Below, one piece after another: positions 3 through 6,413 of a stretch of DNA of 64,000 nucleotides. Source of the stretch: Methanomassiliicoccus luminyensis B10 (lineage in GTDB: Archaea > Thermoplasmatota > Thermoplasmata > Methanomassiliicoccales > Methanomassiliicoccaceae); NCBI RefSeq assembly GCF_000308215.1, contig NZ_CAJE01000015.1, positions 1 through 64,000 on the forward strand, read 5' to 3'. Numbering within the stretch: position 1 is the first letter of the stretch; each line of letters opens with the position of its first letter. The notes below the pieces were generated by a model. That model did not search any database and was not told where the DNA came from. It saw only the letters and a program-made list of their open reading frames with translations. A program made the position numbers and the translations under genes.

Positions 3-854
3 TCAGCGGGAGCTTGTCCCGGCGAGCTCGGCGCTCAGTTCCCACAGCCGCTTCTGGTCCTCCTGATCATAGGACCGCCGGGAGGACCGGGCCTTCTTCC
101 GCCGCACATAATACCCGCCGGTGGCGCCTTCCACCTCCGGTGACGAGGCCAGGTATACCGTCGTCCTCGCCCCCTCCTCCGGGCCGATCATGATGGGGCG
201 GAGGAGGAGCATGACCGCGCCGAACCAGCCGCCCACACCCTTGGCGAAGTTGGTCCTGACTATGCCGGGATGGAGGCAGTTCGCGGTGACCCCCGTCCCC
301 TCCAGGCGGCGCGAGAGCTCGTAAGTGAACATGATGTTGGCCAACTTGGCCTGGGAATAGGCCCTCAGGGGATCGTACCCCCGCTCCAGCATGATGTCGT
401 CGAAGTGGATCCGCCCGAACACGTGAGCGACCGAGCTCACCGTCACCACTCTGGAGGGAGCGCTGGCCTTCAGCCGGCCCATAAGAAGGTCGGTCAGCAG
501 GAACGGGGCCAGGTGGTCCAGGGCGAAGGTATGCTCATACCCATCGGCGGTCAGCTCCCGTTTCCCGATGACCAGTCCGGCGTTGTTGACCAGTACGTCC
601 AACCGGTCGTACCGGTCCAGGAAGCGCGAGGCCAGGCCCCTCACCTCCTCCATGGAGGTGAGATCGGCCACCAGCGTGTCGGCGGTGCCGCCCCGGGATT
701 CTATCCCGCCCACTACCGTGCCCAGCCTGCCCTGGTCCCGGCCTACCAGGACCATGTGAGCCCCCATGCCGGCCAGCTCCACGGCCGCGGCCCTGCCGAT
801 CCCCGAGGTAGCCCCGGTCAGCAGCACCGTCTTTCCCGCCATCGGCTTATCCAT
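3..854 (-). CDS. SDR family NAD(P)-dependent oxidoreductase
   Basis: A classical short-chain dehydrogenase/reductase of about 283 residues, probably reducing or oxidising a carbonyl/alcohol with NAD(P)H. The N-terminal Rossmann glycine motif TGATSGIG follows directly after the start, NNAG lies near residue 90, and the catalytic YSQAK (Tyr-x-x-x-Lys) is preceded by a conserved Ser in VTVSS. The overall pattern resembles the retinol-dehydrogenase/WW-domain-oxidoreductase-like branch; substrate unknown. I start at the ATG at 854 rather than further upstream because GGGAGGG lies 5 nt before it and the upstream residues look non-coding. An AT-rich TATA-like stretch at about 911-927 fits a promoter. 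The gene ends 3 nt from the window edge, so its downstream neighbour is unseen. Confidence 0.85.
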   Translation of the reverse strand: MDKPMAGKTVLLTGATSGIGRAAAVELAGMGAHMVLVGRDQGRLGTVVGGIESRGGTADTLVADLTSMEEVRGLASRFLDRYDRLDVLVNNAGLVIGKRELTADGYEHTFALDHLAPFLLTDLLMGRLKASAPSRVVTVSSVAHVFGRIHFDDIMLERGYDPLRAYSQAKLANIMFTYELSRRLEGTGVTANCLHPGIVRTNFAKGVGGWFGAVMLLLRPIMIGPEEGARTTVYLASSPEVEGATGGYYVRRKKARSSRRSYDQEDQKRLWELSAELAGTSSR

Positions 855-1182
855 TGTCGCCCTCCCTTGCTTGCCGGTCGATCCGACCGTCCCCCATTTG
901 CTCCCTACGTTACATAATATACTATATGGGAACCCCGTAGGAAGACCCTCAAGGCTCCTCGGCACGGCCCCCGACGGCCGGCCCGCCCTCCTTTAGCAAA
1001 CGTTACAGAAACATCCAAGATACTATCATTTATCGACATATAGAACTGACTGGCTAATGATTTTTAATGAATATCAATTAGGATAACCAGATGAAAAATC
1101 ACTTCAAAGATAGGCGCGTCATTAGGTTTGCTCTGTCAGGCGGCATGCCGTGAGAGCGGCATAACCGACGACACGAGATGGG

Positions 1183-2538
1183 ATGGGTTTAGAAATGAAG
1201 TCTTTACCTAAATTAGCGATAGCTGTCCCGATAGCAGCGGTGCTGCTGCTGGGAGTGCTGCTGTCGTCCAATTTCGCGGCCGCTGCGGCCCCCACCCCCG
1301 AAGTAGGAAGGGTGACCGTATCTGGCCAAGAGATCCTGGTGGGCGGCCACAAGCCCGACGCGCCGTTCTTCGGCGTGGTGGACACGACCGTCCTCGCATT
1401 CGCAACTCAAGCTTACATCAACGGTGACAAGACCGTGGCCGGCAAGGGCTCGGTGTTCAACGCGCCGGATACGGGGACCCATGTCCCCGTGACGCCCAAC
1501 GACACTCCGGACGCGTTCTGGAACCAGTACTTCGCCCAGATGGCGCACTACGGCGTCAACCTGGTGCGCATCGGTCCCGGCGACAGCTGGGGTTCCGAGA
1601 TCCAGTACAATGCCTGGCTCAACCACCACGATGAGTACATGGACCTGATCGACTGCATGACATACTATGCTGAGGTCAACGGCGTGTACCTGGTGTTCGT
1701 GACCGGCGGCGTCCAGCACGAGACCCCCTTCGCCTACGGCGGTTCGGGCTCCGTGTTCGACCCCAAGTCCGAGGCCTTTGACAACTATGTCAAGTTCAGC
1801 CGCTCGATGATGACGTACCTGGACGACGAGAACATCGTCGCCTGGTACGATCTCTTCAACGAGCCGGACCACAACGGTGTCAACGAGGCTTACTGGCATG
1901 GCGACAAAGTCAAGTTCAACACCTGGGCCCGCGCCCTGGCCAGCGCCACCGCGGGCGCGTCGACGCACCCCCGGACGCTGGGTGTTGCTGGATACAGCAA
2001 CCTGTTCGGGTGGAGCCAGTCGGACTTCGATCTCTCCACCGGCAAGACCGGGTTCGAGATCGCGCACCGGCACTACTATGCCTCCGCCAACGACCCCAAG
2101 GTCTTCACCGAGCCTGAGCAGTGGGCCGACAACGACAACATGCCCCTGTACTGGGGAGAGCTTGCCAACAACGGCGAGTACCCCCTGAGCAGGTACACCT
2201 ACGGCGAAAAGACCATCTACGCCAACGGGGGGCAGGCCATTACCTCCATGGTACTGACCGGCACTTCCGATTACCCCTACAAGGGCGGCGTCGAGGCCAA
2301 GAACGTCGTAAGGGTCGACGACGGGCCTGTCAAGGTGAAGGTCCAGAACACTGATGCCAACGGCGCTTCCGCCAGCGGCGGCGTGTTCACCGGCGCCTCG
2401 TCCATCTATGGCGGGGCCTCCGCCGGCGCCATCGGCGCCTCCGGCGCTTCCGGCAGCTCTGTCATAGGCGCTCTCGGCCTGGCGGCCATGATCGGCCTGG
2501 TGATGTTCCTTTACTTCGACCGCCGCAGGCTTTGCTAA
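1183..2538 (+). CDS. Secreted, membrane-anchored GH5-like (clan GH-A) glycosidase homologue
   Basis: About 451 residues. A hydrophobic signal segment (residues 8-36) is followed by a domain that reads like a clan GH-A TIM barrel: FNEPD with Glu227 as the likely acid/base, HRHYY (His297) at the position of the usual H-x-Y, and YWGE with Glu326 as the likely nucleophile. A Gly/Ala/Ser-rich linker (about 395-430) and a C-terminal transmembrane helix ending in RRR would hold it outside the cell. Substrate unknown; a mannanase- or cellulase-like activity on host or community glycans, or self-glycan remodelling, are possibilities. It is a close paralogue of the gene at 4249, with long identical DNA tracts. 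An alternative start is the ATG at 1195. The 180 bp upstream is AT-rich and probably holds the promoter. Confidence 0.72.
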   Translation: MGLEMKSLPKLAIAVPIAAVLLLGVLLSSNFAAAAAPTPEVGRVTVSGQEILVGGHKPDAPFFGVVDTTVLAFATQAYINGDKTVAGKGSVFNAPDTGTHVPVTPNDTPDAFWNQYFAQMAHYGVNLVRIGPGDSWGSEIQYNAWLNHHDEYMDLIDCMTYYAEVNGVYLVFVTGGVQHETPFAYGGSGSVFDPKSEAFDNYVKFSRSMMTYLDDENIVAWYDLFNEPDHNGVNEAYWHGDKVKFNTWARALASATAGASTHPRTLGVAGYSNLFGWSQSDFDLSTGKTGFEIAHRHYYASANDPKVFTEPEQWADNDNMPLYWGELANNGEYPLSRYTYGEKTIYANGGQAITSMVLTGTSDYPYKGGVEAKNVVRVDDGPVKVKVQNTDANGASASGGVFTGASSIYGGASAGAIGASGASGSSVIGALGLAAMIGLVMFLYFDRRRLC

Positions 2539-2647
2539 GCTTGACGGGGCGAACCTCAAACCTCTTCCCCTGTTTTCTCTATTTCATCATCCTATTGGAC
2601 CAGTGACAACGGCACCCTGTCTCGACGGGGGCCATGATTCTGTGCGT

Positions 2648-4003
<1,356 letters not shown>

Positions 4004-4086
4004 TCGACACCTGCTAGGTCTATTGAAGCCGCATGCGAATGAACCTTTGCCGTGGTTATCCGAAACCGGCATTTTCCGGCCCGATA

Positions 4087-4181
4087 TTATCTAGAAGGAT
4101 AATTTATGCGATTTTTCCAGCCAGCATGATATTGTTATCTTTTTCGAGATAAAATCCAGTATGCACTATTATTCTAGATAA
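4087..4181. promoter_or_regulatory. Repeated TTATC/GATAA dyads upstream of second glycosidase gene
   Basis: Three short imperfect dyads lie in the AT-rich region before the gene at 4249: TTATC-6 nt-GATAA at 4087-4102, TTATCT-6 nt-AGATAA at 4135-4152, and a related TTATTCTAGATAA at 4169-4181. The spacing between centres is roughly 49 and 31 nt. They could be binding sites for a regulator of the glycosidase or of the divergent RibA-type gene, whose start lies about 90 nt away. AT-rich archaeal promoters can produce such patterns by chance. Confidence 0.35.
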
Positions 4182-4248
4182 CTGGAAAGATACCGCTTTT
4201 TACCATGCCTCTCGGTCTCCGAATGCTCTGTTTCGAGAGGTAATTTGG

Positions 4249-5838
4249 ATGGGTAGCAACACAACAAAGCTAGTAGTGATTTTGTCAGCCCTTGCGCTGC
4301 TACTACCCGGAGCTGTCATTTTGTTCGAGACCGATGGGGTCTCGGCGGCTCCAGCCTACGGACGGATCTCGGTATCCGGTTCCGACTTGACTGTCAACGG
4401 CGACGCTTCCGCCCAGTTTTTTGGTGTGGTCGATACCACTGCTCTTCAATTCGCGATCATGGCGTACATCAACGGTGACATGACCGTCGCCGGAAAGACC
4501 TCGGTGTTCAACGGGCCCGATACGGGCGGGGACATGCGAATGTCCCAGAACGCCAACGCCGAGGAGTTCTGGCACCAGTACTTCGCCCTGCTCGCCTACT
4601 ACGATTGCAACATCGTGAGGATCGGCGCTGGCGACACCTGGGGCACCGAGCTGCAGTACCAGGCCTGGCTGTATCACCATGACGAGTACATGAACCTGCT
4701 CAAGATCATGCTCGACGAAGCGTACGAGCATGGCGTGTGGGTGGTCCTGGTGCTCGCCGGTTCCCAGGGGGAATCGAACGCTCCCTACGGCTTCGGCGGT
4801 TCCGGCTCGGCCTTCGTGGCCGGCTCCAGCGCGTTCAACCGCTATGTCGAGTACTGCCGCGACGTTATGGGCGCTTTCGAGTACCATGACGCCCTGGGGT
4901 TCTACGACATGTGGAACGAGCCTGACCACAACATCGTCAACCAGAACTACTGGAAGAACGACAAGGTCAAGTTCAACACCTGGGCCAAGGCGGTCGCTGC
5001 GGCGACCGCCGGCGCGTCCACTCACCCCAGGACCATGGGGGTCGCCGGCTACGGCACCCTGTTCGGGTGGAGCCAGTCGGACTTCGATCTCTCCACCGGC
5101 AAGACCGGGTTCGAGATCGCCCACCGGCACTTCTATGCCCAGGCGGACGACGCGTACCTGTTCACCGACCCCGAGCAGTGGGCCGCCAATGACAACCTGC
5201 CCCTGTTCTGGGGAGAGCTGGCCAAGAACAACGTGTATCCCCTGGTAAGGTGGACGTTCGGCGAGAACACCATCTACGCCAACGGCGGGCAGGCCATCAC
5301 CTCCATGGTGCTGACCGGCACGACCAACTACCCGTACCGGGGAGGCACCCTGCCAGACCCAGTAAACCCTCCGGCCACGCCGGATCCGGCCGACCCGGAG
5401 CTGCCGCCCCTCGTGATAGCCATCACGCCTCCTGTGCAGGAGGTGTCGTACGGGGACGAGTATGTTTCCACTGTGACCGTCAGCGACACGGCGACCGTGA
5501 GCGTCACATACGACGCTCCCTTCCTGAGCTATGATCAACAGAGCCATACGCTCTCGGGAACGCCGGGCCAAGACGAGGTGGGGACATACAACATAAGCGT
5601 CACGGCGACGGCGTCGGACGGCAGGACGACCACCCAGGAATACCACTTGATAGTATCGGCCGGCGATGAACCGACCGATTCGGTCAACGTGACGGTCGTG
5701 CCGACCGTTTCCAACGCCGGGTACGTCCTGGGCGGGGGGTCCGGCTCGGCCTTCCTGACCCTCGTCATGGTCGGACTGGTGCTGTCGGCCTTGGGATGCA
5801 TACACATCTTCGGCGGAGCATACCGCCGCAAGAGGTGA
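4249..5838 (+). CDS. Secreted GH5-like glycosidase homologue with Ig-like domain and membrane anchor
   Basis: About 529 residues, paralogous to the protein encoded at 1183. Signal segment residues 7-34; clan GH-A-like barrel to about residue 365 with WNEPD (Glu224, acid/base), HRHFY (His294) and FWGE (Glu323, nucleophile). A proline-rich hinge (PDPVNPPATPDPADPELPP) leads to one putative Ig/cadherin-like beta-sandwich (about 388-475; the TYNISVTATASDG pattern is typical of He_PIG-type domains). A C-terminal transmembrane helix ends in RRKR. Domain order therefore is secretion signal, enzyme, spacer domain, anchor. The ATG has GAGAGGT 7 nt upstream. The Ig module is absent from the paralogue, so the two differ in how they present the catalytic domain. 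Confidence 0.72.
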   Translation: MGSNTTKLVVILSALALLLPGAVILFETDGVSAAPAYGRISVSGSDLTVNGDASAQFFGVVDTTALQFAIMAYINGDMTVAGKTSVFNGPDTGGDMRMSQNANAEEFWHQYFALLAYYDCNIVRIGAGDTWGTELQYQAWLYHHDEYMNLLKIMLDEAYEHGVWVVLVLAGSQGESNAPYGFGGSGSAFVAGSSAFNRYVEYCRDVMGAFEYHDALGFYDMWNEPDHNIVNQNYWKNDKVKFNTWAKAVAAATAGASTHPRTMGVAGYGTLFGWSQSDFDLSTGKTGFEIAHRHFYAQADDAYLFTDPEQWAANDNLPLFWGELAKNNVYPLVRWTFGENTIYANGGQAITSMVLTGTTNYPYRGGTLPDPVNPPATPDPADPELPPLVIAITPPVQEVSYGDEYVSTVTVSDTATVSVTYDAPFLSYDQQSHTLSGTPGQDEVGTYNISVTATASDGRTTTQEYHLIVSAGDEPTDSVNVTVVPTVSNAGYVLGGGSGSAFLTLVMVGLVLSALGCIHIFGGAYRRKR

Positions 5839-5872: not shown

Positions 5873-5890
5873 ATCCTCTTTTTCTTCTCT
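5873..5890. terminator. Probable T-rich bidirectional terminator
   Basis: The 51 nt between the convergent genes ending at 5838 and 5890 end in CCTCTTTTTCTTCTCT on the plus strand. A pyrimidine/T-rich tract just after a stop codon is a typical intrinsic termination signal in archaea. Confidence 0.4.
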
Positions 5891-6246
5891 CAGCAGGTCA
5901 GGTGAAGTATCGCCACGAACCGCCTGCTCTCGCGGTTCATGATCTCGATGGCGTCCGAGGTCGACCTGACCACCAGATCGTACCTCTCCAGGACGGCCTT
6001 TGCCTGGGGGGTGAGGGGCATCATGCTCTTGTAGCCCGCGCCCACGATGACCACCTCCGGCCGCTCCCCGTCCAGGAACCCCAGCTCCCTTTCCGACAGG
6101 GGAGTGTGGAAATAGTCGGACCGGTAGTCCAGAGAAAGCTCGGTGGGGCGCTCCGTGACGCTTCCGTCCACGTGGACGATGACGTCCTTGACGTACTTCC
6201 TGCCGCCGACCCGGACCCATCCGAAATAACCATCCGCGCCGTCCAT
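5890..6246 (-). CDS. Mth938/NDUFAF3-like domain protein (DUF498)
   Basis: About 118 residues with the compact alpha/beta fold pattern of the MTH938/DUF498 family: YFGWVRVGGRKYVKDVIVH at the N-terminus, PEVVIVGAGYKSMMPL in the middle and the closing VAILHLTC. In this family the protein begins with a short strand and then 'I/V-x-G-K-x-Y', so ATG 6246 fits better than the longer reading frame starting at 6363. Archaeal members are of unknown biochemical role; the eukaryotic relative NDUFAF3 is an assembly factor for complex I. It is convergent with the glycosidase gene and divergent from the DUF116 gene, giving no operon partner. Confidence 0.7.
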   Translation of the reverse strand: MDGADGYFGWVRVGGRKYVKDVIVHVDGSVTERPTELSLDYRSDYFHTPLSERELGFLDGERPEVVIVGAGYKSMMPLTPQAKAVLERYDLVVRSTSDAIEIMNRESRRFVAILHLTC

Positions 6247-6413
6247 CTCGAGGGCCTTGATGGTCCCGGGGCGGGAATAAGGTTGCTGTAAGACCTTCCG
6301 CGGTTCTGGGCTTTGAGAGGCGGATCGGGCGATCGGGGGCGCCCTGACCCTACGAGGATACACGGGGGCTCAATGGGCTTACTATTTGTAGGAGCCCATC
6401 TTATGGGTTGGCA

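What the first reader, a model, noticed from the sequence alone, without database searches (positions are those of the whole stretch)
1183..5838. Two secreted glycosidase paralogues with different anchors and near-identical DNA tracts
The two proteins share the catalytic motifs but differ in linker and the Ig-like module. At DNA level 2001-2063 and 5058-5120 are identical for 63 nt, far above the surrounding similarity, with another near-identical tract near the C-terminal part (ATCTACGCCAACGG...CTGACCGGCAC). This suggests gene conversion or strong constraint. Secreted carbohydrate-active enzymes are unusual for a methanogen and may act on host or microbial glycans.
Basis: partly seen in the sequence, partly recalled or inferred. 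Interest (0 to 1): 0.6.

Follow-up and report, generated by a model that had tools for sequence, protein, structure and literature searches.

The report
Gene-converted GH5-like surface glycosidase paralogues
A gut methanogen carries two neighbouring genes for surface-anchored sugar-cutting enzymes, and one has had the second half of its catalytic domain overwritten by copying from the other, a kind of copying also seen in three related genomes; the enzymes' target sugar is unknown.

Summary
Observation confirmed. Gene A (1183-2538) and gene B (4249-5838) are paralogues with 62% identical catalytic domains. They share one exact 63-nt tract (2001-2063 = 5058-5120).

Gene conversion, not a recent duplication or constraint, explains the tract. 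A's N-half belongs to an old clade with the same gene neighbourhood in other Methanomassiliicoccus species. Its C-half is sister to B (99/99). AU tests reject the alternatives (p 3.5e-5 and 4e-4). Four of 28 within-genome paralogue pairs share tracts of 63-206 nt; none of 387 between-genome pairs below 80% identity exceeds 43 nt. Tracts sit at different positions in different genomes. The tract's silent-site permutation test alone is modest (p = 0.02).

The catalytic domain matches no Pfam or NCBIfam model directly, but one homologue passes the Pfam GH5 cut-off. The predicted fold is a (beta/alpha)8 barrel whose best PDB hits are GH5 enzymes, and both catalytic glutamates are invariant. Both proteins have signal-like and C-terminal membrane helices; only B has an Ig-like module.

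The family occurs in all 15 genomes of its taxonomic family examined, rarely elsewhere. Substrate and a role on host glycans are unproven.

The parts
1183..2538 (+). Gene A, 451 aa: signal-like N-terminal helix, GH5-like catalytic domain, Gly/Ala/Ser-rich linker, C-terminal membrane helix
   Evidence: homology
4249..5838 (+). Gene B, 529 aa: signal-like N-terminal helix, GH5-like catalytic domain, Pro-rich linker, He_PIG Ig-like module, C-terminal membrane helix
   Evidence: model of the catalytic domain
2001..2063 (+). 63-nt tract in A identical to B (recent conversion tract; A residues about 273-294)
5058..5120 (+). 63-nt tract in B identical to A
1888..2292 (+). C-half of A's catalytic domain (residues 236-370), groups with B; older or eroded conversion tract, true left breakpoint somewhere in residues 171-236
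1300..1887 (+). N-half of A's catalytic domain (residues 40-235), groups with the A clade of other genomes
1861..1863 (+). Codon of E227 in NEPDH, predicted acid/base of A
   Evidence: invariant; role by analogy with GH5
2158..2160 (+). Codon of E326 in WGE, predicted nucleophile of A
   Evidence: invariant; role by analogy with GH5
4918..4920 (+). Codon of E224 in NEPDH, predicted acid/base of B
5215..5217 (+). Codon of E323 in WGE, predicted nucleophile of B
2461..2517 (+). C-terminal membrane helix of A (residues 427-445), followed by a short basic tail ending DRRRLC
   Evidence: hydropathy 2.36
5410..5655 (+). He_PIG Ig-like module of B (residues 388-469)
   Evidence: Pfam PF05345, E 2.2e-7, above cut-off
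5755..5811 (+). C-terminal membrane helix of B (residues 503-521), followed by a short basic tail ending YRRKR
   Evidence: hydropathy 2.32
2648..4072 (-). GTP cyclohydrolase II (RibA)-like gene between A and B; not part of the enzyme system, but separates the two copies
   Evidence: Pfam PF00925 E 3.2e-64
3..965 (-). Short-chain dehydrogenase gene, divergent neighbour of A; same neighbour and orientation beside A-clade genes in other genomes
5890..6363 (-). DUF498 gene downstream of B; lies directly downstream of the A-clade gene in locus L044

Best explanation
A and B are old paralogues of one family of surface-anchored, GH5-like (clan GH-A) retaining beta-glycosidases found mainly in the Methanomassiliicoccus family. 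They are exported by an N-terminal signal, held in the membrane by a C-terminal helix, and are predicted to cut beta-linked glycans outside the cell with E227/E326 (A) and E224/E323 (B). Shown by computation: A descends from the clade whose members sit beside the same SDR gene elsewhere, but the second half of its barrel (about beta5-beta8) was overwritten by sequence from a B-type gene, and more recently a 63-nt piece was copied again, most likely B to A. This is ectopic gene conversion by homologous recombination between similar genes 3 kb apart. Similar tracts arose in three other genomes, including between unlinked copies. Inferred, not shown: enzymatic activity, substrate (beta-mannan- or beta-glucan-like linkages are the first guess, from the best structural matches) and biological role (envelope or extracellular glycan remodelling or attachment, since the cell lives only by H2-dependent methylotrophic methanogenesis).
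For: Conversion: longest exact match is 63 (G000 A/B), 63 (G009), 119 (G006 d/e) and 206 nt (G001) in four of 28 within-genome pairs; of 387 between-genome pairs under 80% identity none exceeds 43 nt. N-half tree places A in the A clade (99/97) and C-half tree places A with B (99/99). AU tests: A with B in N-half p = 3.5e-5; A with A clade in C-half p = 4e-4, and p = 0.018 with the 63-nt tract removed. Synteny: SDR gene divergent and directly upstream of the A-clade gene in L043 and L044, DUF498 downstream in L044, as around A and B here. A carries B-type residues in the tract (GWSQSD, EIA) where its clade has GM and EIL, giving the direction. G006 d and e lie on two different contigs, each over 130 kb from the contig ends (contig lengths). 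Enzyme: model of B pLDDT 79.5, pTM 0.84, eight core strands alternating with helices; Foldseek best hits all GH5 and GH1, first 8d89 GH5 E 2.2e-9 with TM about 0.6; family member L022 passes the Pfam GH5 cut-off (26.3 against 23.5 bits); R129, N226-E227-P228, H297-x-Y299 and E326 invariant in 26 sequences and in a wider set of 13.
Against: The silent-site-only permutation test gives p = 0.02 for A/B, not significant after correction for 28 pairs (G001 and G006 d/e are). AU tests used groups chosen after seeing trees. The short segments 171-235 and 236-295 do not decide A's position on their own. G001 and G009 are metagenome-assembled genomes. A and B themselves match no Pfam GH5 model, the model of A is poor (pLDDT 61), TM of about 0.6 leaves the subfamily open, and the GH5 beta8 tryptophan and beta3-end histidine were not found by eye. 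No activity or expression data.
Confidence: 0.8

Rival explanations
1. Strong purifying constraint at the DNA or protein level keeps the 63-nt tract identical in both genes, with no copying.
For: The tract lies in a well-conserved stretch of the barrel (beta5-beta6 region); amino-acid conservation is high there.
Against: Homologous sites vary in other copies: C13 and C19 are 84% and 79% identical to the tract; between-genome pairs at similar identity never exceed 33 nt; in other genomes the identical tracts are at other positions (residues 172-263, 77-116, 329-350).
Confidence: 0.07
2. Simple tandem duplication of one gene, followed by uneven divergence, without conversion.
For: The two genes are 3 kb apart in the same orientation.
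Against: The halves of A have different sister groups (AU p 3.5e-5 and 4e-4). A's neighbourhood is that of the A clade in other genomes. Silent identity is uneven along the gene, 0.39 to 0.90 at fourfold sites.
Confidence: 0.04
3. The GH5-like domain is a catalytically silent glycan-binding adhesin rather than an enzyme (compatible with gene conversion).
For: No activity data; domain partners (Ig, PKD, Big) are typical of adhesin-like proteins; the organism cannot live on sugars.
Against: Both predicted catalytic glutamates and the surrounding R, N, H-x-Y residues are invariant in 26 homologues, which is not expected for a binding-only fold.
Confidence: 0.15
4. The C-half of A was acquired by recombination with a B-type gene from another strain or species (horizontal), not from B next to it.
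For: In segment 296-370 A is as close to other B-type members as to B (A+B neither shown nor rejected).
Against: The 63-nt tract is identical to the B gene in the same genome, and no such run is shared with any other genome sampled; nearest neighbour of A in residues 236-295 is B.
Confidence: 0.12

Closest known systems
Glycoside hydrolase family 5 (clan GH-A), especially endo-beta-mannanases and endo-glucanases
   Same: Predicted (beta/alpha)8 barrel, N-E-P at beta4, H-x-Y at beta6, G-E at beta7, Arg in V-R-I at beta2; one family member passes Pfam PF00150; best structure hits are GH5.
   Different: A and B are below Pfam detection, B is 12-15% identical to the best structures, and no subfamily can be assigned; the usual GH5 beta8 Trp was not seen.
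mtrA-1/mtrA-2 in methanogens (PMC4632066)
   Same: Domain-restricted gene conversion between paralogues with different membrane tails, recurring in several lineages.
   Different: There a core methanogenesis enzyme is homogenised over the whole domain; here surface enzymes are converted in patches while overall divergence stays high.
Recurrent concerted evolution in prokaryotes (PMC6053082)
   Same: Paralogues in one genome become more alike than orthologues.
   Different: That survey reports 26 genes, mostly key members of important pathways; here only segments are homogenised and the genes are peripheral surface proteins.
Adhesin-like proteins of gut methanogens (PMC7883539)
   Same: Exported, anchored, with Ig-like modules, in the same organisms.
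   Different: These have a conserved glycosidase-type catalytic domain.

Membership tests
GH5 / clan GH-A | (beta/alpha)8 barrel fold | tested here: met
   Model of B pLDDT 79.5, pTM 0.84, and Foldseek hits to GH5; model of A weaker
GH5 / clan GH-A | Two catalytic Glu at the ends of beta4 (NEP) and beta7 (GE) | tested here: met
   E227 and E326 invariant, at predicted strands 4 and 7; geometry not measured
GH5 / clan GH-A | Score above the curated GH5 profile (PF00150) | tested here: inconclusive
   A and B no match; homologue L022 passes, 26.3 against 23.5 bits
GH5 / clan GH-A | Other conserved GH5 residues (Arg, His, His-x-Tyr, Trp) | tested here: inconclusive
   R129 and H297-x-Y299 present and invariant; beta3-end His and beta8 Trp not recognised by eye in the alignment; no structural superposition available
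GH5 / clan GH-A | Retaining beta-glycosidase activity | not testable with these tools
   needs enzyme assays
Gene conversion between paralogues | Identical tract unusually long for the pair's divergence | tested here: met
   63 nt against at most 33 in 135 matched pairs; codon shuffle p 5e-5; stricter silent test p 0.02
Gene conversion between paralogues | Different sister groups for different segments of one gene | tested here: met
Gene conversion between paralogues | Paralogues older than the conversion, shown by orthologues or synteny | tested here: met
   A-clade members in other genomes and shared SDR neighbour
Adhesin-like proteins | Export signal, cell-surface anchor, repeat or Ig modules | tested here: met
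   (hydropathy only, no dedicated signal predictor)
Adhesin-like proteins | Adhesion function | not testable with these tools
   needs binding assays

The most novel reading that the evidence does not exclude
Repeated conversion between paralogues acts as a natural half-barrel swap: the acid/base half from one lineage is combined with the nucleophile half from another, generating new substrate specificities in anchored surface enzymes of Methanomassiliicoccus while the anchor stays fixed.
Probability: 0.15. Interest if true: 0.65.

Novelty: new member of a known kind. Interest (0 to 1): 0.42.

Why it matters
It documents patchwise, recurrent gene conversion in a surface-enzyme family of a human-gut methanogen, with a clear natural chimera of a (beta/alpha)8 barrel. 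It also identifies a lineage-wide GH5-like family that profile annotation misses in this genome. If active, these enzymes would add extracellular glycan processing to an organism known only for methylotrophic methanogenesis. The chimera gives a direct test of whether barrel halves carry specificity.

Tried and rejected
Direct Pfam, NCBIfam and PDB sequence searches with A: nothing significant. PDB profile search: only a weak GH5 mannanase hit, E 0.045, aligned at NEP. PDB search with L022: chance hits only. Viral, phage and plasmid origin: no relatives. First structure model, of A, too weak in its C-half, so B was modelled with a slightly deeper alignment. Strong constraint and simple duplication rejected (see rivals). 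Papers on half-barrels and gene conversion together: no relevant hit. First ORF extraction read minus-strand loci in the wrong orientation and was redone.

Full report
Observation. The two ORFs and the 63-nt identity are exactly as described. The catalytic domains are 62% identical in protein and about 71% in DNA. Both proteins begin with a hydrophobic signal-like helix and end with a hydrophobic helix plus basic residues. B alone has a He_PIG Ig-like module.

Origin of the window. It is contig 15 of a 2,620,233-base, 26-contig genome. Relatives recovered by protein are named Methanomassiliicoccus and allied archaea. M. luminyensis B10 is deposited as 26 contigs (PMC4153887), so the genome is very probably that strain (inference).

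Family and distribution. The genome has two more copies, on contigs C13 and C19. All 14 other genomes of the same family examined carry the gene, as do 2 of 19 genomes of one other family of the order (f3) and none of 19 of another (f2). In a sample of 390 genomes of the phylum only members of the own family matched. No viral, phage or plasmid relative was found. That distribution speaks against a gut-specific role; the clade with M. luminyensis is described as generalist (PMC7883539).

Is it a glycosidase? A and B match no family model over the catalytic domain, and PF00150 finds nothing in the whole genome. The homologue L022 passes the PF00150 cut-off. The catalytic domain of B was predicted with pLDDT 79.5 and pTM 0.84, with alternating strands and helices of a (beta/alpha)8 barrel. 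Its best PDB matches are GH5 enzymes, several of them beta-mannanases. R129, N226-E227-P228, H297-x-Y299 and E326 (A numbering) are invariant in 26 homologues and in a wider set of 13. From knowledge of GH5, these are the expected acid/base, nucleophile and supporting residues. Substrate is not determined.

Gene conversion. Three lines agree. (1) Run length: four of 28 within-genome paralogue pairs share 63-206 nt exactly, whereas 387 between-genome pairs under 80% identity reach at most 43 nt. Pairs are not independent, so this is a strong contrast rather than an exact probability. (2) Topology: residues 40-235 of A group with the A clade (99/97), residues 236-370 with B (99/99). AU tests reject A+B in the N-half (3.5e-5), A+A-clade in the C-half (4e-4), and the latter still at 0.018 without the 63-nt tract. 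Short segments 171-235 and 236-295 do not decide alone, while 296-370 rejects the A clade at 0.026. (3) Synteny: the SDR gene stands divergently upstream of A-clade genes in L043 and L044, and DUF498 follows in L044, as around A and B here. A is thus the positional orthologue of the A clade, with RibA and B lying between it and DUF498.

Layers and direction. Fourfold-site identity between A and B runs 0.40, 0.58, 0.60, 0.39, 0.90 and 0.70 along the gene. This suggests an older, partly eroded conversion of the C-half plus a recent 63-nt one. The tract in A carries B-type residues not found in the A clade, so B to A is the likely direction.

Recurrence. G001 copies a and b (adjacent) share 67 + 206 nt separated by one mismatch, residues 172-263. 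G006 d and e share 119, 32, 37 and 47 nt within residues 77-176 on two contigs more than 130 kb from their ends. G009 a and b share 63 nt at residues 329-350 on two contigs. The different positions argue against a conserved DNA element.

Weak points. The silent-only permutation test gives p = 0.02 for A/B, 0.003 for G009, and the minimum attainable 0.0003 for G001 and G006 d/e; about 1% of sampled between-genome pairs fall under 0.01. Clades for the AU tests were named after seeing trees. Two of the genomes with tracts (G001, G009) are MAGs (names from the matching contigs). The activity, surface location and role are inferred.

Comparison. Conversion limited to one domain of paralogues with different membrane tails is known for mtrA in methanogens (PMC4632066) and concerted evolution of paralogues is known in other prokaryote genes (PMC6053082). 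The enzyme fold is known. The combination in this surface family was not found in the papers searched. Verdict: real, well explained, moderately interesting.

Noticed in passing
L049:5875-8779 (G001): Adjacent A-type and B-type copies share about 274 nt with one mismatch, while their N-terminal parts are only about 43-51% identical in protein: the strongest conversion case seen.
   Followed up: yes
L003:1379-2854 (contig C13) and L004:1450-2553 (contig C19): Third and fourth copies in the genome. C19 ends right after the catalytic domain and C13 has an Asp/Thr/Gly-rich tail without a membrane helix, so these may be released rather than anchored.
   Followed up: partly
L015, L016, L017: A-clade proteins of one genus have a conserved tail of about 80-90 residues after the membrane helix, presumably cytoplasmic; absent from A and B.
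   Followed up: no
L027 (G060:C36), L039 and L070 (G002:C24), L058 (G006:C4): Some family members have in-frame TAG or other stops or are split; decay, or pyrrolysine for TAG since the order encodes it, not resolved.
   Followed up: no
L041, L042: Distant relatives of the catalytic domain are fused to BspA-type leucine-rich repeats (L041) or a right-handed beta-helix (L042).
   Followed up: partly
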